From positions 124,001-188,000 of the forward strand of contig CALAMO010000010.1 of the NCBI GenBank assembly GCA_937925855.1: DNA of 64,000 nucleotides, in the 5' to 3' direction. Origin of the DNA: an uncultured Thiotrichaceae bacterium (GTDB taxonomy: Bacteria > Pseudomonadota > Gammaproteobacteria > Thiotrichales > Thiotrichaceae). Below are positions 29,075 to 64,000 of the stretch, piece by piece; within the stretch, counting starts at the first letter, position 1; each line of letters starts with the position of its first letter. The notes below the pieces were generated by a model. That model saw only the letters and a list, made by a program, of their open reading frames with translations, was not told the DNA's origin and searched no databases. The position numbers and the translations under genes were made by a program.

Positions 29075-29149
29075 ATTTTCCTAGAATTTCATGTCCTGGC
29101 AGCGAATCTGTACTATATTCTTGGCAAGATAATAAGAGAGGGGATTGTT

Positions 29150-29341
29150 ATGGTGTCTTGTCAAACCGCTACTTCCAGGTCGATGCATAAGGGCTACGCA
29201 GGGACGGCACGGAAATTATTAGATAGTCTGATCGTATATCGTGCCGAACTAGGCGAGACGGGGCGACAGCTGGAAAAGTTGTTACGTGTTTATGGGGTAG
29301 CAGCGAGTTCGGATCTGCCGCATTCTAAGCAAATACACTAA
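29150..29341 (+). CDS. Hypothetical 63-residue protein
   Basis: No family is recognised. GAGAGGGG lies 8 bases before the ATG, a good ribosome site. The product is mildly basic, with an amphipathic helix in the middle (TARKLLDSLIVYRAELGETG, then RQLEKLLRVYGVAA) and no signal peptide or membrane helix. It ends just before the 53-bp repeat array. It could equally be a chance open frame, but the ribosome site and helical periodicity favour a real gene. Confidence 0.45.
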   Translation: MVSCQTATSRSMHKGYAGTARKLLDSLIVYRAELGETGRQLEKLLRVYGVAASSDLPHSKQIH

Positions 29342-29372
29342 TTATCTTTTGCTGCAACAAGCGGGTGGAAAT

Positions 29373-29567
29373 GTTATCGCAAGCATGGAAATCTGCGATT
29401 TCCACGGTGTTGCGCTGGCGGACGTGTTATCGCAAGCATGGAAATCTGCGATTTCCACGGTGTTGCGCTGGTGGACATGTTATCGCAAGCATGGAAATCT
29501 GCGATTTCCACGGTGTTGCGCTGGCGGACGTGTTATCGCAAGCATGGAAATCTGCGATTTCCACGGT
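29373..29567 (+). repeat. 53-bp tandem repeat array, four copies, each with a hairpin
   Basis: Four head-to-tail units start at 29373, 29426, 29479 and 29532 (period exactly 53; the last unit is cut at 36 bases). Each holds GTTATCGCAAGCA followed by an 8-bp perfect hairpin, TGGAAATC-TGC-GATTTCCA, and CGGT. The 17-base connectors are near-identical, differing by two transitions in the third. A diverged single copy lies about 1 kb downstream. Open frames through the array are artefacts, since 53 is not a multiple of three. Confidence 0.95.
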
Positions 29568-29610
29568 ACTATCGTCTAAGTGGTCTGCCTCATTTATAGT
29601 CAATCGTTGG

Positions 29611-29650
29611 AAAGCCTGCCTCATACATGTAAGGGTGTATGGGGCTTTTT
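29611..29650 (+). terminator. Rho-independent terminator downstream of the repeat array
   Basis: AAAGCC with a distal TCATACA arm pairs with TGTATG and GGCTTT across 29611-29646 and ends in a T6 run. It lies about 45 bases after the last repeat, so the array could be the body of a transcript ending here. The remaining bases up to the next start (29651-29811) hold an AT-rich stretch with TATTAT at 29786-29791 as a possible -10 and no gene. Confidence 0.7.
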
Positions 29651-29811
29651 TGCTGTATAAAATTAGGCTTTCTGCGCCTTAGCTTTAATCCCATAGCACT
29701 TTATTCACCTGTGTTTGCCTGTTGTTCATGGCTGCTGTTTAAATCATTTTTACTAATTCTTCTGAAATTCGTTAATATATGCGCTTATTATAGGCAACTC
29801 GGAGGAAGGGT

Positions 29812-30501
29812 ATGACTGATCTTAAAGCATCTGAAGGAACGTTAGCTAACTGTAATTCTGCGGTTTCAGAAAGCGCTAGTGTTTGGTGTGAACGTTCTGA
29901 TGCTGACAAAATTCCCTGTCCCGCACTGCTGAGTTTTTACAACAATGGCGTATTAAATCCAGACGCAGCCGGTAATGTCAGCATTGATCATCTGGACGCA
30001 GTGCTAGCCAGCGTCGGGGTCAGTGCCACGGTGCGCAAAGTCCTGACCAAAGGGGCGGACAAAACGGATGAAATCCCCGATAGCTTTAATTTGTTTGCGC
30101 TGCGTGATTCCAGTCTGGATCACAGTGGTAGCACGGGTATTCGTGACCCAGACGTTAATCCTGAGAAATTAGAGCAGGCTTTATTGCGCTTCAGTGAAGA
30201 CGGCCGTATGTACGCCGAACATTTTGCCGCTGCCGCCAATCAGGCTTGTTTGCATGACCCTGGTTTTAAAGGCAGTGCGATTCAAACCGTAGAATTTAGC
30301 GCGCTGCTTGAGGTATTTGGTCGCCTTGATGAGGCTGAAAAGCGTTATCTTACACTGGAGGATGTGCGGCGTCTCTGGCTGGACGGTCAATACCCAGAGG
30401 CTTGGCAGCCGCGCCCAGCGGATGATATTGGTGTGAGTGATGTGCTGGCGAGTGTGGCGGTTTTGTCGGTGAAGCGTATAGTGCAGACCCTCGGGCTCTG
30501 A
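29812..30501 (+). CDS. Possible heme-thiolate (family 2, chloroperoxidase-like) peroxidase
   Basis: This 229-residue protein follows a strong GGAGG ribosome site. The sequence KIPCPALLSFYNNGVLN near residue 33 resembles the PCP-ALxxLxNHG heme-thiolate motif of chloroperoxidases and unspecific peroxygenases, in which the Cys is the axial heme ligand. Later NLFALRDSSLDHSGSTGIRD sits where the EHDxSLSR element would be, and LTLEDVRRLWLDGQYPEAW resembles the C-terminal family pattern. The conserved acid Glu before His-Asp is not evident. No signal peptide is present. The assignment rests on motif order only and could be wrong; otherwise the protein is unrecognised. Confidence 0.4.
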   Translation: MTDLKASEGTLANCNSAVSESASVWCERSDADKIPCPALLSFYNNGVLNPDAAGNVSIDHLDAVLASVGVSATVRKVLTKGADKTDEIPDSFNLFALRDSSLDHSGSTGIRDPDVNPEKLEQALLRFSEDGRMYAEHFAAAANQACLHDPGFKGSAIQTVEFSALLEVFGRLDEAEKRYLTLEDVRRLWLDGQYPEAWQPRPADDIGVSDVLASVAVLSVKRIVQTLGL

Positions 30502-30553
30502 CAAGTCGCTGCGTAACCCAAAAGTGTGTAATGACGAGCATAAAATAACTCAC

Positions 30554-30611
30554 CGTGACCGTAGAAGAACGTTCACCGCAAGCATAGAAATCTACGATTT
30601 CTACCGTCACG
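30554..30611 (+). repeat. Dispersed relative of the 53-bp repeat, with alternative pairing
   Basis: CGCAAGCA (30578-30585) followed by TAGAAATC-TAC-GATTTCTA and CCGT matches the core of the array units at 29.4 kb. Stem bases change on both sides (G-C becomes A-T), so pairing is kept. In addition the right arm (30599-30611) is complementary, 12 of 13 bases, to CGTGACCGTAGAA at 30554-30566, so two competing hairpins can form. It lies between the stop of the putative peroxidase and the cyclase gene. Confidence 0.75.
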
Positions 30612-30793
30612 AGTGTTACAAATTAATAGAGTGGTAGGAGTGACAGCACTCGTTAGTGCAGCGGAGCTGGCATAGTTTTTATGCGTGGTGTCAATGTACC
30701 ACAAATGCTTAGTGTATAAACGTTAACCCCGGTGTTGATGGCGACTGCTTAGGCAGTTTGCCGCATCTGCCCAGTTTGAGAGGTGGGTCTAAA

Positions 30794-32143
30794 ATGGGTA
30801 AAAAACGCTATCAGTATCCCAGGCATATTCAGGTAGCACTGGATGCCTCATTAATGGTGCGTGTGTTAACTTATCCACCTCTATTGGTGGGTATTTTGTT
30901 ATTGCCCGAGTACAATTTAATGGCTGTTATTTTTTCAGCTCTGATGATTGTTGTCTGGATACCCCTGGCTTACGGTGTGACCAGACGTACTGAAAAGCCA
31001 ATAGCAAGAGAAATTATTAATCTACATACGGAGGCTTGGCTAGTCGGCCTCATTGTGCCACTGGTAGATTTTAATCCGGTTTTTATATTAGTGGTTGTCG
31101 TTATTGTTGGGATGGGGGGAGTCGCCTATGGTGGTTTCTGGTTGTGTGCAAAACGATACGTGTTTTTAGCTATTGGCATCGGTATATCTGTGTATGTTGT
31201 TGGGTTTAGCTATAAATATGAGGCGTGGTTGTCAACTGTTGCCATTATGGGACTCAGCGTTTTGTTTTCAGCTTTTGCGATTAGCTACGGGTCATTGGTG
31301 GGGGCAAAAGAAGCGGTTAGTGCTAGAAAAGCGCTCAAAAATAAGAAAGCAGAGTTAGAGCAGCTCAATGCAAAACTGGCGAAATACCTCTCTCCTCAGG
31401 TCTACGATTCTATTTTCCAGGGTAAACAAGAAGTCAGGATTGGCACGCATCGCAAGCGACTGACCGTCTTCTTTTCAGATATAAAAGATTTCACCAAAAT
31501 AACAGAAAATATGGAGTCAGAGGCTTTAGCTTCTTTGTTAAATAGTTATTTGAATGAAATGGCAGAAATTGCGCTACGGCATGGTGGTACGATCGATAAA
31601 TTTATCGGGGATGCCATCCTAATATTTTTTGGTGACCCTGAGTCAAAGGGTAAGCAGGAAGACGCTGAGGCCTGCGTGCTTATGGCGCTTGAAATGCGTG
31701 AACGCATGCAGGAGCTGCGCAAAAAATGGAAAAGTGAGGGTGTGGCAAGTGCCCTGCATATCAGGTGTGGCATTACCACGGGTTTTTGTACGGTCGGTAA
31801 TTTTGGCTCAGAGAATCGCTTGGATTATACGATTATTGGCGGGCAGGTTAATATAGCTGCTAGATTAGAATTAGAAGCGCAGCCGGATCATATACTTATT
31901 TCACAAGAGACGCACGCCCTGGTGAAAAATAAAGTCTTATGCGAAAAGAAAGATGAAATAACGGTAAAAGGCATTGCTTATCCGATTGAAACCTTTCAGG
32001 TCGTCGACCTGCGGGACAGGGTGAATACCGGTAAAGAGGCCATTGATGGAAAGATTAGTGATTTTATCGAGCAGGTTGAAAATGAGAATTTATCACCTGC
32101 GGATAAAGATTATATCGCCAAGAAAATATTACAGCAGCTGTGA
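30794..32143 (+). CDS. Membrane-bound class III adenylate/guanylate cyclase
   Basis: This ~449-residue protein has an N-terminal membrane domain of five to six helices (residues ~25-180, MASE2-like in layout), a short coiled coil (ARKALKNKKAELEQLNAKLA), and a class III cyclase catalytic domain. The first metal Asp is in TVFFSDIKDFTKIT, the adenine-specifying Lys and second Asp are in GGTIDKFIGDAILIFFGD, and the transition-state Asn/Arg pair is in IIGGQVNIAARLE. The Lys indicates ATP rather than GTP. It should make cAMP in response to a membrane or periplasmic cue. ATG 30794 follows GAGAGGTGG. Confidence 0.92.
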   Translation: MGKKRYQYPRHIQVALDASLMVRVLTYPPLLVGILLLPEYNLMAVIFSALMIVVWIPLAYGVTRRTEKPIAREIINLHTEAWLVGLIVPLVDFNPVFILVVVVIVGMGGVAYGGFWLCAKRYVFLAIGIGISVYVVGFSYKYEAWLSTVAIMGLSVLFSAFAISYGSLVGAKEAVSARKALKNKKAELEQLNAKLAKYLSPQVYDSIFQGKQEVRIGTHRKRLTVFFSDIKDFTKITENMESEALASLLNSYLNEMAEIALRHGGTIDKFIGDAILIFFGDPESKGKQEDAEACVLMALEMRERMQELRKKWKSEGVASALHIRCGITTGFCTVGNFGSENRLDYTIIGGQVNIAARLELEAQPDHILISQETHALVKNKVLCEKKDEITVKGIAYPIETFQVVDLRDRVNTGKEAIDGKISDFIEQVENENLSPADKDYIAKKILQQL

Positions 32144-32333
32144 TTTATTCACTTTCTATTTAGATAAAGAAACACTATCCTTAAGGTTACGTTAAATTAT
32201 TAAGTATCAGCAGATGCTTTTTTAACGAGCTTAACAGTTGGCGCGAGGAACAAACAGGCCATAACGACTGGTCACTCAGTATGTTTAGCGCTGTCGGTGA
32301 ACTTGCGCCAGATGAATAGCCTAAGGAGGGAAG

Positions 32334-33065
32334 ATGTCGAATATTGCAGGTAAGGCGTATGCTATGAATGTTATTACGCCCAGCCATCCTAAATGTACCT
32401 GGTTCAACCGCTTTATCTTTATGCTGGCGCGCAGCCAGCCAGCTCAGCTCAAAGGCTTATTAGGCCTGTCGATTATTCATTTTGCTCGCTGGGTCATTAT
32501 TAAGCGCGATCAGTGGCCTGACCTAGGTCAAGGCAAGCAAACGCTTAAAAATGACTATATGCTCTTTTGCTCAAACTTTAATGGTACCTGGGATCAATAT
32601 ATCGACGCCTTTTCCGATGGGATTCCCGATGGCCTGGATATGTTTTGGTATAGCGCCACCAAATACCCGAAATCCTTACCCGTTACACCATTTAAAGACT
32701 ATATCAGCCATAATCAGATTTATACCGACTATTATTACAATGCCACGCCCGGTTCGGCGCAGCGTGATATTAAAGCCTCTATTCACGTCTATGATGAGGT
32801 AAAGAAGTTGGCACAGCGACACCAAGACGCTGATCCCGCGACATTTGCCGCTGCCTATCGTGAGATGCTGCTGGCGGTACAGCACCATTTAGGCGAACCC
32901 GGCTATGCGCCGGTTGCTAGCTTGGATACGGAAAGGGCGGATTTTAATCGCAGGGATGTGATTCAAGCGACCCAGAATCGCCTACGCCAGCTGCGTGCGG
33001 CGGAGACAGTAGTGGCCGAGCCTGCGGACAAGCACCAACAGCTTGGAGGTGCAGACAATGCCTAA
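32334..33065 (+). CDS. DyP-operon protein 1, uncharacterised soluble domain
   Basis: This 243-residue protein has an excellent ribosome site (AAGGAGGG). I recognise no named family. Notable stretches are IIHFARWVIIKRDQWPDLGQ, then NDYMLFCSNFNGTWDQYIDAF, then PVTPFKDYISHNQIYTDYYY. The same order of elements recurs in the next protein (THICRFVVLDD, NCAYLMFTAEIDA, CMRYMQRCQVET), so the two seem to share a domain. A hydrophobic helix near residue 40 is weak and may not span the membrane. Its stop lies 8 bases inside the next gene, and the third gene encodes a DyP peroxidase, so the three products very likely act together. Confidence 0.7.
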   Translation: MSNIAGKAYAMNVITPSHPKCTWFNRFIFMLARSQPAQLKGLLGLSIIHFARWVIIKRDQWPDLGQGKQTLKNDYMLFCSNFNGTWDQYIDAFSDGIPDGLDMFWYSATKYPKSLPVTPFKDYISHNQIYTDYYYNATPGSAQRDIKASIHVYDEVKKLAQRHQDADPATFAAAYREMLLAVQHHLGEPGYAPVASLDTERADFNRRDVIQATQNRLRQLRAAETVVAEPADKHQQLGGADNA

Positions 33066-34134
33066 TTTTGATACCGGACATTATTTTCTGACGTTGCTAT
33101 CACCCATTAAACAAGGCACCACGGCGGATGGCATTTCCTACGCCCAAAATTTACGGATGCTGCTGACCGCGCTGCGCACGGCACACCAATCACCGGCGAC
33201 CGAGGGTGATGATGTTAGCGCACAGGATAACAGTCCCTTTGTGCTGAGTCAGCGCACGCATATTTGCCGCTTTGTGGTGCTGGATGACGTGGTGTTTAAC
33301 GGTCGAGTGCAGCGCAATGCGCTGCTGACTAAGTTAACAATGAAGCTGATGAAGAGATTCCAAGGGGCTGAGGCAACTAATCCGCTGCTGGAGCCGCAGG
33401 ACGTTGATCGGTTGAACTGTGCCTACCTGATGTTTACCGCAGAAATTGATGCTTCACGCCGGCCTGAGGATGCGCTGCCGCAGACCTTGACCCTGGAACA
33501 GCAGGATGAGGTGCGTGATACCTATGCGCGCGAGCTGTGGGAGACGATGCCCGAGGCGATTCATGAAATTTACAAAAATTGTGAAGGCTTTGCACCAACC
33601 AGCGCAGAGGATTGCATGCGGTATATGCAGCGCTGTCAGGTAGAAACAACCCTGCCATTTAACGATTATTGGCTGGAGCCACCTGAGTTGCCAGGGTTGC
33701 CAGGGAAAATTCTGTTGCCCCTGCTGCTGTTGCCGCTGGGGGTGACCCTGTTGGCGCTGCTGAGTTGGCTACTCCAGCTGGATAAAGTGCTGCTATTGGG
33801 TTGGCTGTTGGGCTTAAGCTCGGGCTGGACATTGTTAATCGGATCGGCACTTACGGCGGCGGCATTTTATGGGGTCTATCGCTATATCCTCGCAAATGGC
33901 AATAAGCCGATGCCAGCGGGGCGGTATGCAGATCTACCGTCCGTATTGAAAGCGCTGTATACACAGCAGCACTTCGCACAGTTTGCGATTGAGATGCAGG
34001 GCAAAAGTGATGAGGAGCTGTACGAACAGTTCGGGCAGTTTATCGCCAAACATAAACCCGACGATAAAATGAGTCCGAGTCAGGCCCCAGGGGTCATTGC
34101 CAGCAAAACTGCGAACGGGGGAGAACAAGCATGA
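33058..34134 (+). CDS. DyP-operon protein 2, accessory domain plus two membrane helices
   Basis: This ~358-residue protein has an N-terminal soluble part (residues ~1-210) with THICRFVVLDDVVFNG, NCAYLMFTAEIDASR and CMRYMQRCQVETTLPFNDYW, resembling the first operon protein. A hydrophobic hairpin follows (ILLPLLLLPLGVTLLALLSW, then helices through LLIGSALTAAAFYGVYRYIL), and then a cytoplasmic-type tail. ATG 33058 follows GGAGG by 8 bases and overlaps the previous gene; an earlier TTG at 33043 lies before that site. It overlaps the peroxidase gene by ATGA. A role as membrane anchor or lipid-facing partner of the peroxidase is inference. Confidence 0.7.
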   Translation: MPNFDTGHYFLTLLSPIKQGTTADGISYAQNLRMLLTALRTAHQSPATEGDDVSAQDNSPFVLSQRTHICRFVVLDDVVFNGRVQRNALLTKLTMKLMKRFQGAEATNPLLEPQDVDRLNCAYLMFTAEIDASRRPEDALPQTLTLEQQDEVRDTYARELWETMPEAIHEIYKNCEGFAPTSAEDCMRYMQRCQVETTLPFNDYWLEPPELPGLPGKILLPLLLLPLGVTLLALLSWLLQLDKVLLLGWLLGLSSGWTLLIGSALTAAAFYGVYRYILANGNKPMPAGRYADLPSVLKALYTQQHFAQFAIEMQGKSDEELYEQFGQFIAKHKPDDKMSPSQAPGVIASKTANGGEQA

Positions 34135-35864
34135 TCGCCAGACAAGCAGCAGACGAGTGTTTGCAGCTGGATGAAATCCAGGGCAATGTGGTGCGTGCTT
34201 ATGGCCGCTTCAGCTTTCCCTGCGCGCGTTATTTTTTTCTTAATATTCGTAATGTAGCCCAGGGTAGGGCCTTTATTGAGGCCATAAGGACGGAAGTCAC
34301 GACGGCACAGCGCTGGACGGCAGCGGGTGCGCCGGGCCTGGATAAGCCGCTGGTCACCTTGAACATTGGTTTTACCTTTAGGGGGCTACTCCGCTTAGGT
34401 CTACCGACGCGCACCTTGCAAAATATGCCGGAAGAGTACATCGATGGGATGCGCAAGCGGGCGCATATTTTGGGTGACAGTGATAGCGCATTGCTGGATA
34501 AAGATCAGGATCACGTTCAGCATTGGGATCGCCTGTGGCGCGAGAGCCATCAGGATGATGATGCCTTCGATAGTGAGGATGATGTCCATATCTGGATCTC
34601 AATGAATGCACAGGTCAAGGAAGCCGGGAGTCATGAACCACACCCCGCGCTTGAGGATAAAACGAAATACCTCAAGCAATTGTGTGCAGCGTCTGCTGGA
34701 GGTGTTGCCATTCTCGCCAAGAACGGCCCCGCAGGCGATGAGGAGTATCAGTCCGCCACGGCCATTTTTAAGCCGGGGCCGGAGGGTAAGCTGTGGCCGT
34801 CTCCGACTGAACATTTTGGCTTTGCCGATGGAATTGGTGATCCGGTCTTTAAAGGTCAATACCGGGCGAAAGACGAGGCGGAAGCTGTGATTGGGCGCGG
34901 TAAGTGGATGGACGCAAAACAAGGCTGGCAGCCGCTGGCGACCGGTGAATTTATCCTGGGTTATCCCGATGAAAGCCAGGAATTACCCCCCACAGCGGCA
35001 CCGGCTAACTTTATGAATAACGGCACGTTCATGGTGTACCGCAAGCTGCATGAGAATGTTGAGACGTTTGAGGCAGTGATCGCTGAGGAAGCCGCCGCCT
35101 ATGCGCAGGTGATGCAGGTCGATTTGGCCGAGGCCAAGGTGACCTTAAAAGCCAAAATGGTCGGGCGTTGGCCGGACGGTGTGCCGCTGTCGAAGGTGCC
35201 GGATTACCCGGCCTGGCGTCAGTTTCGTCAGGCGAAGGGTTTTGATCAGCTCGGCGAGATAGACCCCGCGCGCGCAACGCCGGAGCAGCTGAAAGCATTA
35301 GCTCAGGCCGCGCAAAATTATAAGACCTACTTTAAGTCCAATGAGATCAAAGACTTTCGTTACGGCGATGACCTCAAAGGCTATAAGTGTCCGGTAGGTT
35401 CGCATCTGCGCCGGACGAATACGCGCGATTATATGGATCCGTTGAACACCAAGGATGGCCAGAATGCAACGGCGACGACGCAGCTGAATAAGCGGCGGCG
35501 TATTTTACGTCGCGGTCTGCCTTATGGTCCTGCGGTCGCCGGGCAGCCGATGACTGACCAGACTGAGCAGGGCGTTATTTTCATGGCAATCTGCACCAGT
35601 CTGTTTCGCCAGTTTGAATTTGTGCAGCAGCAGTGGATTCAATACGGCCTGGATTTTAATGCCGGTAATAATACCTGCCCGGTGTTGGGAAACCATGCGC
35701 ATCATCAGCGCTACACGATTAACGCTGATCCGGCGTCGGGTAAACCGCCTTATATTATGAGTAAGCTGAAGACCTTTGTGGAAACGCGCGGCGGGGATTA
35801 TTTCTTTATTCCATCGATGACGGCGCTGCGCATGATTGGGATGGGGATTGTTGATCCCACCTGA
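34131..35864 (+). CDS. DyP-type heme peroxidase
   Basis: This 577-residue dye-decolorizing peroxidase is of the long (class C/D-like) type. LDEIQGNVVRAYGRF opens it. The distal Asp motif GxxDG appears as EHFGFADGIGDP, the segment CPVGSHLRRTNTRDYMDP includes the likely proximal heme His, and RRRILRRGLPYGPA supplies the distal Arg region. FMAICTSLFRQFEFVQQQW and NTCPVLGN are further family features. It oxidises dyes, phenolics or other bulky donors with H2O2. No signal peptide or Tat motif is present, so it is cytoplasmic unless held by the upstream membrane protein. A strong terminator closes the operon. Confidence 0.93.
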   Translation: MIARQAADECLQLDEIQGNVVRAYGRFSFPCARYFFLNIRNVAQGRAFIEAIRTEVTTAQRWTAAGAPGLDKPLVTLNIGFTFRGLLRLGLPTRTLQNMPEEYIDGMRKRAHILGDSDSALLDKDQDHVQHWDRLWRESHQDDDAFDSEDDVHIWISMNAQVKEAGSHEPHPALEDKTKYLKQLCAASAGGVAILAKNGPAGDEEYQSATAIFKPGPEGKLWPSPTEHFGFADGIGDPVFKGQYRAKDEAEAVIGRGKWMDAKQGWQPLATGEFILGYPDESQELPPTAAPANFMNNGTFMVYRKLHENVETFEAVIAEEAAAYAQVMQVDLAEAKVTLKAKMVGRWPDGVPLSKVPDYPAWRQFRQAKGFDQLGEIDPARATPEQLKALAQAAQNYKTYFKSNEIKDFRYGDDLKGYKCPVGSHLRRTNTRDYMDPLNTKDGQNATATTQLNKRRRILRRGLPYGPAVAGQPMTDQTEQGVIFMAICTSLFRQFEFVQQQWIQYGLDFNAGNNTCPVLGNHAHHQRYTINADPASGKPPYIMSKLKTFVETRGGDYFFIPSMTALRMIGMGIVDPT

Positions 35865-52315: not shown

Positions 52316-52654
52316 AATGGGTTAGCTATCCTGTTGGCTCATCCTATCACTACCTACGGCTTAAGCAGCCCGTGTCGTTTGGAAACGGTGCAAACGGCTG
52401 GGGCAGTATAACGCAGAATTAGTAACCAGTTGTCAGGGAAATTTAGTCGCCCAGCGGGGCTAGGTTAGCTTGCCCTATCATGAACGGGGTAGTCTAAATG
52501 GTGTGATGAGGCTAGAGGAGATAGCCGACACCACACGTTTATCACAGTTCAATATTAAGTCCTTAAGTGCAGAAATCGATAACAGCTATAGCCCCTGGGT
52601 CAATCTCAGAGTGCGGCGTTCTGCATTCCCTATAATGGATTTTTGGAGAGTATT
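52316..52654. other. Gap between ung and the giant-protein gene, with a -10 box
   Basis: These 339 bases separate divergent genes. A perfect TATAAT lies at 52631-52636, 19 bases before the giant gene's ATG, with no convincing -35. GGAGAG (52645-52650) serves as ribosome site, so the 5' leader would be only about a dozen bases. An open frame from 52470 runs through this box into the next gene in another frame and looks non-coding. No other structure stands out. Confidence 0.5.
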
Positions 52655-55600
52655 ATGTCCCTACGCGACAAATCCGTCAGGCACCGTCTGTTGTGCCTAC
52701 CGTGTGACGCTGTGTCTAAGGCAGCGTCCCGCATCGGTCTCAGGTGCGCTTCCTACCTGAAGCTTCCGATTATGTTGACTCTGATGGTTGTTGTAACCGG
52801 TTTGGTGACGACGACCTATACCCCTACCGCAGAAGCTAAGGCGGTTAAGAATCGCTTATCGACCTGTTCGGTGACGCCAACTAGGAAATTTTATGATGCG
52901 ATACGTAAGGATCTCGCCAAATACGAACGTCATTTCAAAGCGGGCGAACGCGCGCTATCGCATGGCGCCGCCGGTTTTCTGGAATTTCACATTTTAACGG
53001 CTCGCCCCAAAGCCGGCGCCAAGAAAGAAAAAGTTTTTGCATCGGTGAAAGCACTGCACGATACGTTGAGCACCTTGTCACTGTGTACCCGAAAGCTGAA
53101 AGACCTGAACTATCAGCTAAGATCACAGTTGAGGTCGACCTACAACGCTTATATGAGTCTGTATAAACGTTACCTTAATTCAGCGAGTAAGGTGATGTCG
53201 GATCAACTCGAATCATCGCTCTTCTCATCCCGACGTATTGCCAATAGCACCACTAATATCAATACTAACGCAAGATTCAAGGCTAGATTAGCGTGGACAA
53301 AATCCGTTAATTGGAAGAACCCGAACTTAAATAGACGGGTGTTTAGTCATAACTCAGCCAAAAAAAATGACAAGGCCTTAGCCTTAGCGATGAATGTGGG
53401 GCATTACTTCCACGGTAGTAAGTCGATCTGGCAAAGTAATCGACCTCTACTGCAAGCGGGTAATGATTTTGCTCGGCTCACGCAGTATGACGACTTCGTT
53501 GAGAAGCGGTTGGCGTATTTGGATGATGCTGACGCGCAGTATAAGAGTGATTTTGCAAAATTAGTCGATCATCGTTTGGTAGTGAAGGATAAAAATAGAA
53601 GAAAAGCTTACAAAAAGCGCAAAAAAAGCAAGCGTATCAAAGATCATCTGAAATTAACGGCGCTCTCACAGACAGCAAAAGTGCGGTCTTGGCGCAGTTA
53701 TAAAGCGGCGCAAGTTGCAATGGGATTCACGCAGATCATTAAAACCATGCAGTATACGCGGGGTGAGATAGAAAGAAATAAGTCGCGGGCTACCGAGCAT
53801 GCGGAAAGAAATGTGTCCGCGGCCTTAAACAAACTAGTTAATATGCGGCGCCTGTATTTAACGCTTGAAAGATTTGCAGATAAGCGTTCGGCCGCTGAAC
53901 TTAGTGTGGTTGATATTGCGAAACGGCTAAGCGGTAGTAGTGCGGGTACTTCGTCAGAACTGAGTCCGCCAAGATTGAACCCTCCAGCGGCGGCTGCCCC
54001 GCTCATGGCAAGAAGCGGTGGTAACTCAGTTGTTAATTGTCGCAAGTTAGACTATCCTGTTTATATTTATAATAATATTGATACTTTTTCTGCAGATCCG
54101 AGGAAGGCAGTGCATAGATTTACTGTGCATCAAGCTGACTTACCTGATGGGCGGACTTCATTTGCCAATCTTTTATTACAACTTCGTTTGTATACTTTAA
54201 ACGTGAGGCCTGGGTTAGCCTCTTCTGGATCCAGAATTAATTCTGCAGCTCGCAGAGGATTTGGCTGCAATATGGGAAAGTTTTTTTATGCAGCAACTAA
54301 GTATTTCCACGATTATTTTCAGGTGATCAGTGAGAATTTTTCGACACACAGTCGTTTGCTCAACACCGGAGGTGTGAATGAAGATGGTTTGAAAAATATT
54401 CTCGATGTCTCAACCCTAGAACAGTATGACCTGCTTGAAAGAGTTGCGGGTACGCCACAGGGCGTTGGGGTGTTCAACGCCGCCCACCTAGTGCAGCCAG
54501 GTAGCCATCGCCCAGCGAACTGCTTTGGTACCTATGGTGGTTTGTTGTCAACGTGTAACGCTCAATTTGGGCCCAAAATGATGATGGCAATTCCTTTTGC
54601 GCTGCTAGCCAGCAAAGACGCGGCTACAAGAAAAACGATTGCATTAGAGTACTTGGGAAGTCTATTCGATCGTTCAGACGATCAGATTTATAATGAACGT
54701 TATGAAAACCTTTATAATTTTAGAGAGGAGTTCACGAGGTATTATCTACGGTATATAGATCAGGCTTTTGATGGTGAGGGGTATCAATACCTTGCGGAAG
54801 ATCTGCGTGTTAATCACTATATGCTTGATTTTATGCTGATGATGGAAATTTTTCAGTCCATCATTTCCTATGATACGAGTTATGTTCCCAGAGAAATGAA
54901 AGCTGAGATTGATTCGATTTACAGCGATCTTTATGCCAAAACCAGGGATGTGGGTTTAAGCCTGCGTAATTATTCTATTGCCGAAGGGTATAACCAACGG
55001 TTATCTGATGCAAAAAGGTATTATGAGCCGAGTGAATCGTTCGACATTACAAAAGATTCATCTAAGTTTTCGTTTTTTTATTACACAAACCGGTGGCTTG
55101 ACCCCGCGATAGATGCCATGGAGACCGTCAAGCGAGTGCGCAGTACAAATCCCGATGACCAGGGAAGAGTCACTAATCGCCAACCCTATTATAGCTTGGT
55201 TGTGGGTGGTCCTGATCCCACTACTTGTAGAAGTATACGAAGTATAGGATCTTGCGTAACTGCGCCAAGGAGTAATACGGCAGCAAGGCATGGTGTGGCG
55301 GGCGCTAAACTCTACAATGCGTTTGAAAACGACACGATGGCTTATTTGAATTCCTATCAGTCCCACCTTGAGAGAATGGTGGTTAATTCTGAGCGATTCG
55401 CCGATTTAGAATGGGATAGCTTGAACGGTACTTCTTCAGTGGCACAAAATGCTACGAAAATGATCGAGATCATGGGGAAACAACAACGCGCCACTGAAGA
55501 AATGTTTGCTGCGTTGCGCCAAGCCACGGTCGCGGCTGCGGTAGCATCCGATGAGATCAGGAAAAGGTATTACGACTGGAATGACTTTGATGGCGGAAGC

Positions 55601-57304
55601 ATTTCTAGGGGGCTCAGAGATAGGCGGGGTTCGAATGATGAGCGCTACGATAGGCTGCTTGAACACAGTGAGAATCTTTTCAAAGTGGCGGAAGCAGGAC
55701 GCCTGGTCAGTACCGAATTTTATACCGGCGGGTCTTCCAAGGCGGTTCTCGATCAAGTCAATAGCAATATAGCGACGGGCTTGGCGAATTACCGTGACTA
55801 CCTGAAAAATTCCAGGAATAATCTAATCGATATCATCGAGTATGAAAGACAGCAGACAGTCTTGAAAAAAGTCATGCTGGCTTTGACGGCGATTTCATTA
55901 TTTACCAGCGGTGCGGATTTGTTCACGAACGATCTCTACGCCCTTCGGCAGGGAATTAAGGGTATGCGTGAAAAAGGTTTGAATAGGGCAGATGCGATTA
56001 AAATTCTACCTGCGGCTAATGCTGCTGCCACCGGTCTTAATGCAGCTCTTCTCGGTGCCAATTCTGCTTGGCTCAGTAAGCCATTGATGCTATTGAACTG
56101 GGAAAAAGCAAAGTTTAATAGAAATCGGATGTTACCTTATAGTCGATATGCGGACGTGGCCAGGGCATTCAGGAATGAAATAAATCGTCTACCGCAGGCA
56201 GCGCTGATAAAACAGGTGGCGCGGGAGGAGTATGAGATTCGTAAACTGCTGTTGAATACGAATCCAAGACGCTTTGGTCCTATGGTAGCTGATACCGCCC
56301 TGTATATGCCTGAAGGGGATGGATGGCTCAGTTATTTTGATTTCAAAATTGAAGTGGGGGCCGGATTACGTACAGCCAGCTACCCCGGATTCACTTATAA
56401 AATAGAAAAAGAAGATCTCGACGATTTACTTAAAAATCGTGCTTTCAGGCCTAACCTAGCGAATTATCGGGGGCATAAGTTCAGCCCAATCGGTAGTCAA
56501 ACCTCTGTAGATTTTTCAAAAGTACCGGTTTTTGATCCATGCTTTCAACGTGGGCAAGCTGTTTGGCATCCTTTTGGTTCAGTTGGGCGCGATATACACA
56601 TGGCGTTCTATATATACGACCTACACCAGGGCAGTGATGCGGATATAACCCGGTTAATGACGAAGATGAGAAATGCCACGGTTAAGGTCGAGAGCGCAAT
56701 TCTGCATCGATTACGGTATCAAGATTACTGTAAAGAAAAGTCGCCTTGGATAGATATCTCTGGATTACCTAATTACGCCACTGGTGTCAATCGCGATGAT
56801 TATTTCGCAGCATCTTGGAGGGTGGATGGTATTGGAAATAGTAGATCTAGTAACCAACCTTTACTCGGTCTTAAGCAAAATACCCGAATGGCGTTGCAAC
56901 TGGCCTATGCCTATAACCTTAGGGCTTTGGATCTGCCGCCGCCGCCGTTTTCTTCTGTGGCGGCCCATTCCAAAATTAGTCCGGCGCTACCCGGTTATGC
57001 GCAAGAATCATCCGAAGCTGCCCCACCTAGGCTATATACCATGTGGGTAAAGAAAGGAGAGGCTTGGGATCGCACTTATGAGATTTCCAAGGGTCCGGGT
57101 AGAGGCATGACCAGCCTGAGAGATATCTATTATAGAGGCCGTGACCATAATGGCGACAGACGAGAGCACATGTACGATAAGATGGATCAATTTGCAAGGA
57201 TCAACGGAACTAGCAATTTTGATCTGATCAAGAAGTATATGGAAGTAGGTCGTGTAGATCCCGCTAAGTTTATTCACTCTGAATTGTACGCCATACCTTG
57301 GTAA
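52655..57304 (+). CDS. Giant exported protein of unknown function (1549 residues)
   Basis: No family is recognised anywhere in its length. A long basic N-region (~40 residues) precedes a hydrophobic core (LPIMLTLMVVVTGLVTTTYT) and a TAEAKA-type cleavage site, so it is likely exported. The predicted mature part has ten cysteines. It is rich in Arg, Lys, Tyr and Asn, with a very basic patch near residue 320 (KAYKKRKKSKRIKD), a Pro/Ala linker near 436-450 that may divide two large helical parts, and two weakly hydrophobic stretches near 1075-1140 (VMLALTAISLFTSGADLF; LPAANAAATGLNAALLG). Base composition is clearly more AT-rich than its neighbours. Start ATG 52655 has GGAG 6 bases upstream. It stands alone, bounded by terminators. 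Confidence 0.85.
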   Translation: MSLRDKSVRHRLLCLPCDAVSKAASRIGLRCASYLKLPIMLTLMVVVTGLVTTTYTPTAEAKAVKNRLSTCSVTPTRKFYDAIRKDLAKYERHFKAGERALSHGAAGFLEFHILTARPKAGAKKEKVFASVKALHDTLSTLSLCTRKLKDLNYQLRSQLRSTYNAYMSLYKRYLNSASKVMSDQLESSLFSSRRIANSTTNINTNARFKARLAWTKSVNWKNPNLNRRVFSHNSAKKNDKALALAMNVGHYFHGSKSIWQSNRPLLQAGNDFARLTQYDDFVEKRLAYLDDADAQYKSDFAKLVDHRLVVKDKNRRKAYKKRKKSKRIKDHLKLTALSQTAKVRSWRSYKAAQVAMGFTQIIKTMQYTRGEIERNKSRATEHAERNVSAALNKLVNMRRLYLTLERFADKRSAAELSVVDIAKRLSGSSAGTSSELSPPRLNPPAAAAPLMARSGGNSVVNCRKLDYPVYIYNNIDTFSADPRKAVHRFTVHQADLPDGRTSFANLLLQLRLYTLNVRPGLASSGSRINSAARRGFGCNMGKFFYAATKYFHDYFQVISENFSTHSRLLNTGGVNEDGLKNILDVSTLEQYDLLERVAGTPQGVGVFNAAHLVQPGSHRPANCFGTYGGLLSTCNAQFGPKMMMAIPFALLASKDAATRKTIALEYLGSLFDRSDDQIYNERYENLYNFREEFTRYYLRYIDQAFDGEGYQYLAEDLRVNHYMLDFMLMMEIFQSIISYDTSYVPREMKAEIDSIYSDLYAKTRDVGLSLRNYSIAEGYNQRLSDAKRYYEPSESFDITKDSSKFSFFYYTNRWLDPAIDAMETVKRVRSTNPDDQGRVTNRQPYYSLVVGGPDPTTCRSIRSIGSCVTAPRSNTAARHGVAGAKLYNAFENDTMAYLNSYQSHLERMVVNSERFADLEWDSLNGTSSVAQNATKMIEIMGKQQRATEEMFAALRQATVAAAVASDEIRKRYYDWNDFDGGSISRGLRDRRGSNDERYDRLLEHSENLFKVAEAGRLVSTEFYTGGSSKAVLDQVNSNIATGLANYRDYLKNSRNNLIDIIEYERQQTVLKKVMLALTAISLFTSGADLFTNDLYALRQGIKGMREKGLNRADAIKILPAANAAATGLNAALLGANSAWLSKPLMLLNWEKAKFNRNRMLPYSRYADVARAFRNEINRLPQAALIKQVAREEYEIRKLLLNTNPRRFGPMVADTALYMPEGDGWLSYFDFKIEVGAGLRTASYPGFTYKIEKEDLDDLLKNRAFRPNLANYRGHKFSPIGSQTSVDFSKVPVFDPCFQRGQAVWHPFGSVGRDIHMAFYIYDLHQGSDADITRLMTKMRNATVKVESAILHRLRYQDYCKEKSPWIDISGLPNYATGVNRDDYFAASWRVDGIGNSRSSNQPLLGLKQNTRMALQLAYAYNLRALDLPPPPFSSVAAHSKISPALPGYAQESSEAAPPRLYTMWVKKGEAWDRTYEISKGPGRGMTSLRDIYYRGRDHNGDRREHMYDKMDQFARINGTSNFDLIKKYMEVGRVDPAKFIHSELYAIPW

Positions 57305-57315
57305 GCCCTCTGTGC

Positions 57316-57346
57316 AGCGACCCGCGAGTATACGGCGCGGGTCGCT
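57316..57346 (+). terminator. Strong GC hairpin just after the giant gene
   Basis: An 11-bp perfect stem (AGCGACCCGCG at 57316-57326 with CGCGGGTCGCT at 57336-57346) with a 9-base loop lies 12 bases after the stop. No T run follows, so it may protect the 3' end, with termination occurring at the next hairpin. Confidence 0.6.
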
Positions 57347-57393
57347 ATGAGGGTGCGGTTCTAGCCCTCAGGTAGGCTGTTTAAACACACCGT

Positions 57394-57420
57394 GCCCAGG
57401 AAAATCTCCTGGGCATTTTT
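57394..57420 (+). terminator. Rho-independent terminator of the giant-protein gene
   Basis: An 8-bp perfect stem (GCCCAGGA at 57394-57401 with TCCTGGGC at 57407-57414) and 5-base loop are followed by A and T5 (57416-57420). Confidence 0.9.
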
Positions 57421-57610: not shown

Positions 57611-58993
57611 ATGGATCTCTATCCCAATCAGCGATCAGCACAAGATGATTTACCCCCAGATCATGCCCGCGCTCATGACAGCACGAGCCGTAAAATTGAT
57701 CCGCAGCGCGGGGCCTTACTGGGTGATCACACGCCGAATGATAATGATCGGGTGGAGATTGGGCCGACGCAGCTGGCATTTTCCGAATGGGCCGCCGCCG
57801 GGCTGGCATTACCCCATCTGCCGCGCATGCGTGAGTACCGCTGGCGGCGCTTAACCCAACACGTCGTGGCGCGTGACTACGGTGGCGTGCTGCTGTTTGA
57901 TCCGCTGAATATTCGTTATGCCACCGACAGTACCAATATGCAGCTGTGGAATACGCATAATCCGTTTCGGGCGGTGTTGCTGTGTGCCGATGGCTATATG
58001 GTGATGTGGGATTATAAAAATTCACCGTTTTTATCAGAATTTAACCCGCTGGTGCGCGAACAGCGAGCCGGTGCTGATTTATTCTATTTTGATCGCGGCG
58101 ATAAAGTCGATGTGGCGGCGGATAAGTTCGCCAATGAGGTGCGGCTACTGATTGAGGAACACGGCGCGAATAATCAGCGGCTGGCGGTGGATAAAATTAT
58201 GTTACACGGCCTGCGTGCGCTGGAAGCGCAGGGTTTTCAGGTGATGGAAGGTGAAGAGCTGACTGAAAAGTCCCGCTCGGTGAAAGGCCCGGATGAAATT
58301 TTGGCGATGCGCTGTGCCGCCCATGCCTGCGAAACCGCAGTGGCTGCGATGGAGCAGGCGTGCCAGCCCGGCCTGTCTGAAAATGAGGTGTGGTCGGTGC
58401 TGCATGCCGAGAATATTCGCCGGGGCGGCGAGTGGATCGAGACACGCCTGCTCACCTCCGGCCCGCGCACTAATCCGTGGTTCCAGGAATGTGGCCCGCG
58501 CCTGATCCAGAATAACGAGCTTATTGCTTATGATACCGATCTGGTGGGGAGCTACGGTATTTGCGTTGATATTTCGCGCAGCTTCTGGCTGGGTGAGCAG
58601 GCCCCGCGCCCCGATATGGTCTACGCGATGCAGCACGCACATGAACATATCATGACGAATATGGCGCTGCTTAAACCCGGTGTGCCCATGCGCGACCTGA
58701 CGTTCAACGCGCATAAACTCGACGCGCATTTCCAGCGCCAAAAGTACGGCTGCATGATGCACGGCGTTGGGCTGTGTGATGAATGGCCGCTGATTGCCTA
58801 CCCGGATCAGCTGGTCGAGGGGGCGTATGACTATGAGTTGGAAGCGGGCATGGTGCTGTGCGTTGAGGCGCTAGTGAGTCCCGAAGGCGGCGACTTCTCG
58901 ATTAAGCTGGAAGATCAGGTGTTGGTGACGGAAACGGGCTATGAGAACTTGACCAAATACCCGTTTGATGCGCGCCTGATGGGTGAGGCTTAA
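57611..58993 (+). CDS. dddP: DMSP lyase DddP (M24 metallopeptidase fold)
   Basis: This 460-residue enzyme cleaves dimethylsulfoniopropionate to dimethyl sulfide and acrylate. It has a pita-bread fold like M24 peptidases. RKIDPQRGALLGDHTPNDND, EIGPTQLAFSEW, GGVLLFDPLNIRYATDSTN, MQLWNTHNPFRAVLLCADGY and SGPRTNPWFQECGPR are as in characterised DddP. Metal ligands are all present: Asp308, Asp310, Asp320, His384, Glu419 and Glu434, plus Asp390 at the position of the proposed catalytic base. Each is offset by exactly 13 from the residues I recall for Ruegeria DddP (295, 297, 307, 371, 406, 421 and 377). No other ddd, acuI or transporter gene is adjacent. Confidence 0.95.
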   Translation: MDLYPNQRSAQDDLPPDHARAHDSTSRKIDPQRGALLGDHTPNDNDRVEIGPTQLAFSEWAAAGLALPHLPRMREYRWRRLTQHVVARDYGGVLLFDPLNIRYATDSTNMQLWNTHNPFRAVLLCADGYMVMWDYKNSPFLSEFNPLVREQRAGADLFYFDRGDKVDVAADKFANEVRLLIEEHGANNQRLAVDKIMLHGLRALEAQGFQVMEGEELTEKSRSVKGPDEILAMRCAAHACETAVAAMEQACQPGLSENEVWSVLHAENIRRGGEWIETRLLTSGPRTNPWFQECGPRLIQNNELIAYDTDLVGSYGICVDISRSFWLGEQAPRPDMVYAMQHAHEHIMTNMALLKPGVPMRDLTFNAHKLDAHFQRQKYGCMMHGVGLCDEWPLIAYPDQLVEGAYDYELEAGMVLCVEALVSPEGGDFSIKLEDQVLVTETGYENLTKYPFDARLMGEA

Positions 58994-61569: not shown

Positions 61570-62765
61570 CGTGGATTCCTTAGGCACTGTACGAGCTGCA
61601 CCAAACGGGTAAAGTGGTGCTCGTCTAGCGCGGTTGCTGTGAGCAAATGCTGTAAATGATCGGGCGTAAACGGTGGCGCGTGAATGGGCTGTAGGTAGGC
61701 GCTAAGGGCGGCATATTGCTCGGTCGTAGACATCAGCTGCCAGCCCGGAATACGTCGCTGTGCCTGTGAGTTCAGGCTGTGCTGTAGCGTCTGGCACAGC
61801 TGTTCACGCCCTTTATCCTGGCGCTTCCACATGAAACGCGCGCTGGCCTTTATGTGGTCTAACAGGCGGCGGCGCTGCGGCGGTGGTTCTGGGATAATCG
61901 CCCCGAAGCGGGGAATTAAGGCCCAAAAGCTAAACAGTAATAGCGCAACACCGACCAGCAGCACCGGGGCTGCGTGGCGTAATAATAGCGTGAATAAGGA
62001 CGGCAGGGTATCCTGATGCAGCAGCCAAACGCGCTGTGGCTGAGCGATATGGCTATGTACGAGGTACCACAGCATCTTGCCGTGATCGGCGTTGTTGATC
62101 AGGTAATTTTCAAAGAAATCCAATTCGGCGAACAGGCTGACATGGCCCGCGCCATAGGGCTGGTCAATGAACCAAGTATCGTGCGCTAGCTGATAATGCG
62201 CGGCGTCAGTGCGGGTCGTATGCAGGCTATGGAAAAAGTTGAGTTCAACACTCAGCGTCTCCGCACTGTTGGCGGGTTGAAATAATACGGGTAGCGCATC
62301 ATCATCCGGCATGATATGCGGCCCGATACGAATATTCAGCCTTTCCTGGAGTAGGTCGCGATCTTCGGTGCTGAAGCGCGCATCAGTGCGGGCCTCACCC
62401 GCGGTATGCGGTGCTGTATCGCTGCGGGCGCGGGTGATTAGGTGTCCACCGGCTGCGACCCAGGCTAGCAGCGCTTCGGTTTTCGCCGCTGATAGGGTGT
62501 AGCGTTCGGTATTGAGGATAATCACGCTATCTGGCGGGGGTAAGGTGAGCAGCCCGTCACGCCGCTCAGCCGGAATGCCCATGCGTTTTAAAAACAGACG
62601 GGCGGCGAACAGGGAATTGCTGCGCGCTTCGCCGCGATAGCCGGTATAGCTATCGACCTGTTTTAGCTCAAAATTATTTAGGAACCAGGAGGTGCCCGCT
62701 GCCAGCAGCGTGAGGGCGAAGAGGGCGTAGAGTAGATAACTCCATTGCAGCTGCGGCCACCTCAT
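61566..62765 (-). CDS. DUF4350 domain membrane protein
   Basis: This 399-residue protein has an N-terminal signal anchor (SYLLYALFALTLLAAGTSWF), then an extracytoplasmic Rossmann-like DUF4350 domain (NSLFAARLFLKRMGIPAERR, VIILNTERYTLSAAKTEALL, WVAAGGHLITRARSD). A second helix (HAAPVLLVGVALLLFSFWAL) and a cytoplasmic helical tail complete it. The family is tied to MoxR operons but has no assigned function. The start at 62765 overlaps the DUF4129 stop as ATGA, better than the longer frame from 62858. Confidence 0.85.
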   Translation of the reverse strand: MRWPQLQWSYLLYALFALTLLAAGTSWFLNNFELKQVDSYTGYRGEARSNSLFAARLFLKRMGIPAERRDGLLTLPPPDSVIILNTERYTLSAAKTEALLAWVAAGGHLITRARSDTAPHTAGEARTDARFSTEDRDLLQERLNIRIGPHIMPDDDALPVLFQPANSAETLSVELNFFHSLHTTRTDAAHYQLAHDTWFIDQPYGAGHVSLFAELDFFENYLINNADHGKMLWYLVHSHIAQPQRVWLLHQDTLPSLFTLLLRHAAPVLLVGVALLLFSFWALIPRFGAIIPEPPPQRRRLLDHIKASARFMWKRQDKGREQLCQTLQHSLNSQAQRRIPGWQLMSTTEQYAALSAYLQPIHAPPFTPDHLQHLLTATALDEHHFTRLVQLVQCLRNPR

Positions 62766-64000
62766 CGGCCTGGCTCCCCGGCCGCGGTGTGGACCGTGTC
62801 TGTGGTCGCTGTGGCCGTGTCGACTGCTGCGCGGGGGTTGGTTGCTGTGGCGGTCCACTGCTGCCAGCTATCGAACAGGGGGGTAACCTCGGTGTCTGCT
62901 GGGATGCGATGGGCATAGGCGATGGTCTGCCAGCAGCGGGTCAGCTGGGCCAAATAAGCGAAGCGCTGGGGGGCTAGCTGGGGGCGGGCGCTATGTAGGA
63001 TGTCGCCTTCGGTATCACTGGCGCTGACGCTGATGGCGTCGTGTCGGGTGAGCTGCATCAGCGTGCCGCGATACAGGAGGCTAAGTGCGGCGCGGTTTTC
63101 TCCGGCCTGCCAGTGGGCTCTGGCCGCTCCGGCGATGTCATCTGGCAGTGATTCCGGGCGAATATCGAGGCCAAATAACACGGCGGGCTGAGTCGGTGGC
63201 AGACTGGCTTTGGGCGCGGGTTTCAGCAGTGCCAAAATGCGCTTGCGGTAGATCAGACCGAGGAACAGGGCGATGAATACTAGGGCCCAAATCAGGTATT
63301 TGAAAATAGTGGATAGCAGTTGAATCAGTTGATGTGCCAGCTCGGTCTCTGTGTCTGGCTGGTCTTTGTCGCGCGGCATCCAGGTTTTGATGGGGCGTAT
63401 ATTATCCAACTCGTCGACCTGCATCACCTGTTCCAGTTCGTGACTGCTGGCACTCACCGGCAGGCGCGTCGGGTGTAAAAACTCGCTTTCGCTGGCCTGT
63501 ACGCCGCTGGGGGCTGTGAGTGCGCTGAAGAGGAGGACGCTACCGAGCAGCGTGAGCACAGTGCGGCCTGCTTGCTGCGCTGGCGTGTTGCGGGCGAGCT
63601 GTTGGAGCCGTGCGCCCAAGCTGCGGAAAGTGATTTCAATATCCCAGGCTTCGAGCTGAGTTCGGCGATTCAGGTAGAGGGCAAACCCGGCGGCGACAAA
63701 AAACGGTTCTATCAGCAGAATGGCAAACGCCTGAATGACCAAGCCGATCAGTTCCATGAGGTAGCGCAGCTCCGCCGTGCTGTTATCACTGAAAAAACTT
63801 ATCAGGTGTTCCCAGGCCTGTTCGCTGGGGTCGAATAATAGGATTAGGGCGTAGAGTGAAAACGTAATAATCAGTTCTAACAGGATGCACGCAAATGTGA
63901 GGCCAACGGCGGTGCTATGACCCTGTAGATACAACAGTTTTTGGCGCTGCACGCGCGCCGCGCCGCGTAATTGCTCCAGCTGCCAGATCGGCAGATTATA
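62762..64000 (-). CDS. DUF4129 domain membrane protein, 5' end beyond the window
   Basis: At least 412 residues are encoded. The frame stays open to the window edge (a GTG at 63952 is only an internal candidate), so the N-terminus is missing. Visible parts are two membrane helices (TFACILLELIITFSLYALIL and VIQAFAILLIEPFFVAAGF), a third around TVLTLLGSVLLFSALTA, a polar periplasmic loop, another helix (YLIWALVFIALFLGLIYRKR), and a C-terminal cytoplasmic DUF4129 part with AARAHWQAGENRAALSLLYRG. It belongs to the MoxR-associated set. A SpoIIM or RDD gene often lies upstream in such operons and may follow beyond the edge. Confidence 0.8.
   Translation of the reverse strand, partial: YNLPIWQLEQLRGAARVQRQKLLYLQGHSTAVGLTFACILLELIITFSLYALILLFDPSEQAWEHLISFFSDNSTAELRYLMELIGLVIQAFAILLIEPFFVAAGFALYLNRRTQLEAWDIEITFRSLGARLQQLARNTPAQQAGRTVLTLLGSVLLFSALTAPSGVQASESEFLHPTRLPVSASSHELEQVMQVDELDNIRPIKTWMPRDKDQPDTETELAHQLIQLLSTIFKYLIWALVFIALFLGLIYRKRILALLKPAPKASLPPTQPAVLFGLDIRPESLPDDIAGAARAHWQAGENRAALSLLYRGTLMQLTRHDAISVSASDTEGDILHSARPQLAPQRFAYLAQLTRCWQTIAYAHRIPADTEVTPLFDSWQQWTATATNPRAAVDTATATTDTVHTAAGEPGR

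What the first reader, a model, noticed from the sequence alone, without database searches (positions are those of the whole stretch)
52655..57304. Giant exported protein with no recognisable family, AT-rich island in the chromosome
The product is 1549 residues long, with a long-N-region signal, ten cysteines in the predicted mature part, a basic patch, a Pro/Ala linker between two large helical parts and weakly hydrophobic segments near the end. Base composition differs visibly from its neighbours, and it has a private -10 box and two terminator hairpins. It could be a secreted toxin, surface or matrix protein, or a contact-dependent factor, acquired horizontally. It is the largest unexplained object in the window.
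Basis: partly seen in the sequence, partly recalled or inferred. Interest (0 to 1): 0.72.

Follow-up and report, generated by a model that had tools for sequence, protein, structure and literature searches.

The report
Giant exported orphan protein, origin unknown
A marine sulfur-bacterium relative carries one very large gene for an exported protein that resembles nothing in the databases searched and is written in an unusual, AT-rich dialect, so it was probably acquired from an unknown source; what it does cannot be read from its sequence.

Summary
Window 52655-57304 (+) is one intact 1549-codon gene: ribosome-binding site, TATAAT box, rho-independent-type terminator, and the best coding score of six frames in every segment. 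GC is 45.8% against 55.5% ± 3.3 for neighbouring genes, and its synonymous-codon score is the lowest of 63 genes (z about -3.6). It stands alone between ung and a DddP-type DMSP lyase gene.

No relative was found by profiles (Pfam, PHROGs, NCBIfam, PADLOC), PDB sequences, plasmids, phages, viral or genome contig scans, the other 62 available genomes of its order/family, or roughly 1,200 further gammaproteobacterial genomes. Weak hits were checked and rejected as chance. There is no paralogue. Structure prediction without an alignment failed for residues 460-1549 and gave only a low-confidence all-helical model for the N part.

Best reading: a species-level ORFan, roughly ten times the usual ORFan length. 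It encodes a Sec-exported protein, probably disulfide-bonded, with a strongly basic helical N part (pI 10.5), acquired from an unsampled AT-richer source. A surface or extracellular binding/structural role is my preferred guess (about 0.3). A toxin is possible but nothing specific supports it. CDI, two-partner, RTX and autotransporter architectures were tested and not met.

The parts
52631..52636 (+). TATAAT, putative -10 box (no recognisable -35)
   Evidence: read; not listed by the two-hexamer scan; pattern search
52645..52650 (+). GGAGAG, Shine-Dalgarno-like, 4 nt before the ATG
52655..57304 (+). orphan gene, 1549 aa
52655..52846 (+). residues 1-64: Sec-type signal with long basic n-region; cleavage motif AEA/AKA
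   Evidence: (hydropathy) and sequence; no dedicated signal predictor available
52847..53974 (+). residues 65-440: basic (net +46, pI 10.5), predicted all-helical; patch KDKNRRKAYKKRKKSKR
   Evidence: structure model of low confidence (pLDDT 52)
53963..54010 (+). residues 437-452: Pro/Ala-rich linker SPPRLNPPAAAAPLMA
54011..55870 (+). residues 453-1072: large central part with Cys 462, 538, 623, 634, 858, 867; near neutral up to residue 860
   Evidence: no confident structure
55871..56059 (+). residues 1073-1135: two weakly hydrophobic stretches (KD 1.54 and 1.26) separated by a polar stretch
56060..57301 (+). residues 1136-1549: C-terminal part with Cys 1296 and 1359
   Evidence: no profile match
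57316..57346 (+). GC-rich hairpin just after the stop, no T-run
   Evidence: -25.4 kcal/mol, z -3.4
57392..57416 (+). terminator-like hairpin followed by T-run, symmetrical (scored on both strands)
   Evidence: -23.0 kcal/mol, z -5.9

Best explanation
A stand-alone, species-level ORFan gene acquired from an unsampled, AT-richer source. Its product is sent through the Sec pathway out of the cytoplasm, stabilised there by disulfides, and possibly passed on through the type II secretion system. Preferred mechanism: a surface or extracellular protein whose basic helical N-terminal part holds on to anionic material (lipopolysaccharide, exopolysaccharide, membrane or nucleic acid), while the disulfide-bonded central and C-terminal part carries the specific activity or assembles with partners. 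SHOWN: an intact coding gene; foreign composition; no detectable relatives in the material searched. STRONGLY INFERRED: Sec export. INFERRED: disulfides, helical N part, acquisition by transfer. GUESSED: secretion route and binding role.
For: Intact frame, best coding score in all six segments. Signal, AxA cleavage motif, long basic n-region. Ten mature Cys that fall into five sequence-adjacent close pairs (gaps 73, 76, 11, 9, 63; P about 0.006 to 0.012 against random placement, post hoc). N part net +46, pI 10.5, helical in the low-confidence model. Codon and GC deviation confined to the gene, with flanks back to about 60%. Absent from all 62 other available genomes of its order/family, including eight of its own genus. 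Type II secretin GspD present in the genome: two frames above the curated cut-off. ung and dddP queries with the same tools do find their relatives, a control for the searches.
Against: No donor and no mobile-element trace. Composition can also deviate in fast-evolving resident genes. No relatives, so selection (dN/dS) cannot be tested. A binding or structural role rests only on charge and helicity. The -10 box lacks a -35. No pathway-specific targeting signal is visible beyond Sec.
Confidence: 0.3

Rival explanations
1. A secreted toxin or antagonistic effector: a delivery part followed by a hydrophobic hairpin (1073-1135) that inserts into a target membrane and a C-terminal toxic domain, acting on competitors, grazers or a host.
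For: Size, export signal, a weakly hydrophobic hairpin-like region at two thirds of the length, and private acquisition fit large toxins in general.
Against: No toxin profile in Pfam, NCBIfam or PADLOC; no RTX GGxGxD repeat, HExxH or other tested motif; no accessory, transporter or immunity-type gene beside it; the hydrophobic stretches are below the usual transmembrane level.
Confidence: 0.18
2. A resident periplasmic or envelope protein that evolves so fast that its orthologues in relatives are no longer recognisable; the AT-rich composition reflects weak codon selection rather than transfer.
For: Large helical, low-complexity-prone proteins lose similarity quickly; another gene in the window is equally AT-rich (30758-32143, 43.3%).
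Against: None of eight same-genus genomes shows even a local match, although ung is found at 63-74% identity in six of them; gene order around ung is not kept in the genus genomes that could be read, and no comparably large exported unknown lies beside ung there.
Confidence: 0.22
3. Cargo of a phage, plasmid or other mobile element (for example a large virion, tape-measure-like or conjugation protein) left behind after the rest of the element was lost.
For: ORFans are often traced to integrative elements (title and abstract of PMC2718499).
Against: No match in 50,697 phage records, 72,556 plasmids or five scans of viral contigs, none in PHROGs; no integrase, tRNA or direct repeats; a signal peptide is unusual for virion proteins.
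Confidence: 0.12
4. A recently acquired gene with no function in this host, not yet decayed.
For: Absence from relatives; no -35 element; isolated position.
Against: 1549 codons remain open, which disfavours a long time without selection; ribosome-binding site and terminator are intact.
Confidence: 0.1

Closest known systems
Bacterial ORFans (species-specific genes without detectable homologues)
   Same: No relatives, lower GC and GC3 than the other genes of the genome; PMC2245933 reports this as typical of bacterial ORFans.
   Different: Length 1549 aa against a mean of 159 aa for bacterial ORFans in PMC2245933; carries a clear export signal.
CDI / two-partner-secretion exoproteins (CdiA, FhaB)
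   Same: Very large, exported, patchily distributed (general knowledge).
   Different: No TPS or haemagglutinin profile, no CdiB/FhaC-like gene adjacent; helical rather than beta-helical as far as predicted.
Type II-secreted exoproteins
   Same: Sec signal, probable disulfides; the genome has GspD secretins.
   Different: The type II route cannot be read from sequence; no known exoprotein domain found.
RTX and autotransporter exoproteins
   Same: Size class only.
   Different: No GGxGxD repeats; no autotransporter barrel or passenger profile; Sec signal argues against type I.

Membership tests
ORFan | no significant match outside its own genome | tested here: met
   metagenome contigs and the full protein databases could not be searched
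ORFan | lower GC/GC3 than the other genes of the genome | tested here: met
   GC3 0.455 against 0.612 +/- 0.059 for neighbouring genes
ORFan | short length (mean 159 aa) | tested here: not met
   1549 aa against PMC2245933; a usual, not a defining, property
Sec-exported protein | N-terminal positive region, hydrophobic core, AxA cleavage site | tested here: met
   by hydropathy and reading; no signal predictor was available
CDI/two-partner exoprotein | TPS secretion domain and haemagglutinin repeats | tested here: not met
   no Pfam or NCBIfam match
CDI/two-partner exoprotein | adjacent outer-membrane transporter gene | tested here: not met
   neighbours are ung, EpmB-like, DddP, DUF58, MoxR, DUF4350
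RTX exoprotein | GGxGxD repeats | tested here: not met
Autotransporter | C-terminal beta-barrel domain | tested here: not met
   C-terminus ...SELYAIPW does not fit a beta-signal by reading
Type II secretion substrate | secreted in a GspD-dependent way | not testable with these tools
   only presence of GspD shown
Horizontally acquired gene | deviating composition and absence from close relatives | tested here: met
   the donor was not identified and the empty site could not be shown, because gene order is not conserved

The most novel reading that the evidence does not exclude
The founding member of a new family of giant Sec-exported, disulfide-bonded proteins with a new fold, encoded as a single-gene mobile trait in Thiotrichaceae and used at the cell surface or against neighbours.
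Probability: 0.2. Interest if true: 0.65.

Novelty: new variant of a known kind. Interest (0 to 1): 0.4.

Why it matters
ORFans are usually short and often suspected of being annotation errors. An intact ORFan of 1549 codons with its own start, terminator and export signal cannot be dismissed that way. If expressed, it would show that a complete giant exported protein can exist outside all sampled sequence families, and would give a new target for structure work. As it stands the finding is a well-documented unknown, not a mechanism.

Tried and rejected
(1) Weak genome hits. G169 (18.3 bits) lies mostly in the frame of a valyl-tRNA-synthetase-like gene and contains stops. Hits at residues 364-441 in several genomes have long frames and coincide with the weak NCBIfam UvrA match at 292-426, so I read them as shared helical composition. 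G1351 and G1434 (23.3 and 16.8 bits) lie on the antisense strand of a lactate-dehydrogenase-like gene, with stops. The reverse idea, that the orphan derives from such an antisense frame, gave only a 35-residue match at E 0.008 in a 4.65-kb test, which is chance.
(2) A frameshifted or antisense known gene: other-frame ORFs give no Pfam match and frame +0 scores best.
(3) Internal repeats: none (self-BLAST).
(4) Flanking direct repeats: only short chance matches.
(5) Structure: C part pLDDT 33, not searched. N part pLDDT 52 gave no Foldseek match below E 1 in PDB or viral models, only generic helical bundles.
(6) Per-segment Pfam: best E 0.012 to a silk protein, below its cut-off.
(7) No Rfam match around the gene.

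Full report
WHAT WAS CHECKED. The open frame 52655-57304 on the + strand is real and intact: 1549 codons, ATG preceded by GGAGAG, with an alternative in-frame TTG 12 bases upstream. A codon-preference score trained on other window genes prefers frame +0 over the five others for the whole gene and for each of six segments. Its fit to local codon usage is poor: lowest of 63 genes (-1.294 against -1.081 +/- 0.059; GC 0.458 against 0.555 +/- 0.033; GC3 0.455 against 0.612 +/- 0.059). GC is about 61% in the 300 bases from 51900 and 59-60% in the 600 bases from 57300; the dip covers the gene and part of the upstream spacer. One other gene of the window (30758-32143, 43.3% GC) is as AT-rich, so low GC alone is not unique here.

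SIGNALS. TATAAT lies at 52631-52636, without a -35 hexamer; a two-hexamer scan does not list it. An ad hoc pattern of TATAAT with a following GGAG also occurs once inside the gene, so this is weak evidence for a promoter. Two hairpins follow the stop: 57316-57346 (-25.4 kcal/mol, no T-run) and 57392-57416 (-23.0 kcal/mol, z -5.9, T-run on both strands). The second probably separates the gene from dddP.

ANATOMY. Residues 1-64 form a signal with an unusually long basic n-region, core 35-53 and an AEA/AKA cleavage motif. The mature protein has 1485 residues, about 169 kDa and pI 9.6, with the charge concentrated in residues 65-440 (net +46, pI 10.5). Ten mature cysteines lie in five close neighbouring pairs; random placement gives pairs this close in about 0.6-1.2% of trials (noticed after the fact). 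Two weakly hydrophobic stretches lie at 1073-1091 and 1117-1135, not at the end. There are no internal repeats, RTX repeats or tested catalytic motifs.

RELATIVES. None. Profile libraries: Pfam, whole and in eight segments, PHROGs, NCBIfam, PADLOC. PDB sequences. Plasmids and phages by tblastn. Genome contigs and viral contigs by peptide patterns; these find only fairly close relatives. Whole genomes: the own genome has no paralogue; all 62 other genomes of the family, which here equals the order; further gammaproteobacteria and other genomes of the phylum drawn evenly; two large orders. In total 1769 genomes were counted by the tool, with some overlap between draws. As controls, the same tool finds ung in all 10 well-assembled relatives tested, and the contig scan finds hundreds of dddP relatives. 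The few weak hits were read and rejected.

STRUCTURE. Without an alignment AlphaFold2 gave pLDDT 52 for residues 64-451, all helical, and 33 for residues 460-1549. Foldseek with the N model gave no match below E 1. The fold is therefore unknown; 'helical N part' is a low-confidence statement.

SURROUNDINGS. Upstream and divergent: ung, then an EpmB-like radical SAM gene, which passes the KamA-family cut-off but scores below the EpmB cut-off, then a topoisomerase-like gene by reading. Downstream: dddP, DMSP lyase, 866 bits against a cut-off of 600, then DUF58, MoxR and DUF4350 genes. Nothing nearby suggests a secretion partner, immunity gene or mobility gene; there is no tRNA in the window. Order around ung or dddP is not conserved in the same-genus genomes that could be read, so an empty site could not be shown. 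The genome carries GspD secretins. The closest named match of the neighbouring dddP is an uncultured Cocleimonas MAG (83%), Thiotrichaceae by NCBI taxonomy. That identification is indirect, since dddP moves between lineages.

INTERPRETATION. Absence from every relative, together with one-gene-long foreign codon usage, makes acquisition likely but not proven: no donor, element or empty site was found. Export is well supported by the signal. Function is not. I commit to a surface or extracellular binding/structural protein at 0.3, because the dominating feature of the N part is charge and helicity, and because no toxin, enzyme or transporter signature was found. Rivals: fast-evolving resident envelope protein 0.22, toxin 0.18, mobile-element cargo 0.12, useless passenger 0.1.

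COMPARISON. It meets the definition of an ORFan and shares the low GC3 reported for bacterial ORFans, but is nearly ten times their mean length of 159 aa (PMC2245933). It works like no known exoprotein class as far as can be tested: the defining features of CDI/two-partner, RTX and autotransporter proteins were tested and not met.

LIMITS. No metagenome protein search, no full UniProt or nr search, no alignment-based structure, no dedicated signal-peptide or coiled-coil predictor, and codon statistics from about 97 kb rather than the whole genome.

Noticed in passing
window 57611-58993 (+): dddP, DMSP lyase (NCBIfam equivalog, 866 bits, cut-off 600), 73-84% identical to roseobacter, Granulosicoccaceae and Cocleimonas copies; full-length copies in only 3 of 9 genus genomes searched and in different gene contexts, so it appears mobile. 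It lies directly downstream of the orphan.
   Followed up: partly
window 29000-33000: A second AT-rich stretch (43-49% GC), with an adenylate/guanylate-cyclase-like gene (30758-32143, 43.3% GC) just upstream of two unassigned ORFs and a DyP-type peroxidase-like gene (34131-35864); the ORF at 33043-34134 has no Pfam match.
   Followed up: partly
L046:10523-15541 (34 kb downstream on the same contig): Another very large protein (1672 aa) with DUF11/SpaA-like surface-protein domains and normal composition.
   Followed up: partly
window 62762-63952 (-): A 396-aa protein at the end of the MoxR/DUF58/DUF4350 cluster has no Pfam or NCBIfam match.
   Followed up: no
window 57316-57346: Perfect 11-bp GC-rich hairpin right after the orphan's stop codon without a T-run, upstream of the real terminator; role unclear.
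   Followed up: partly
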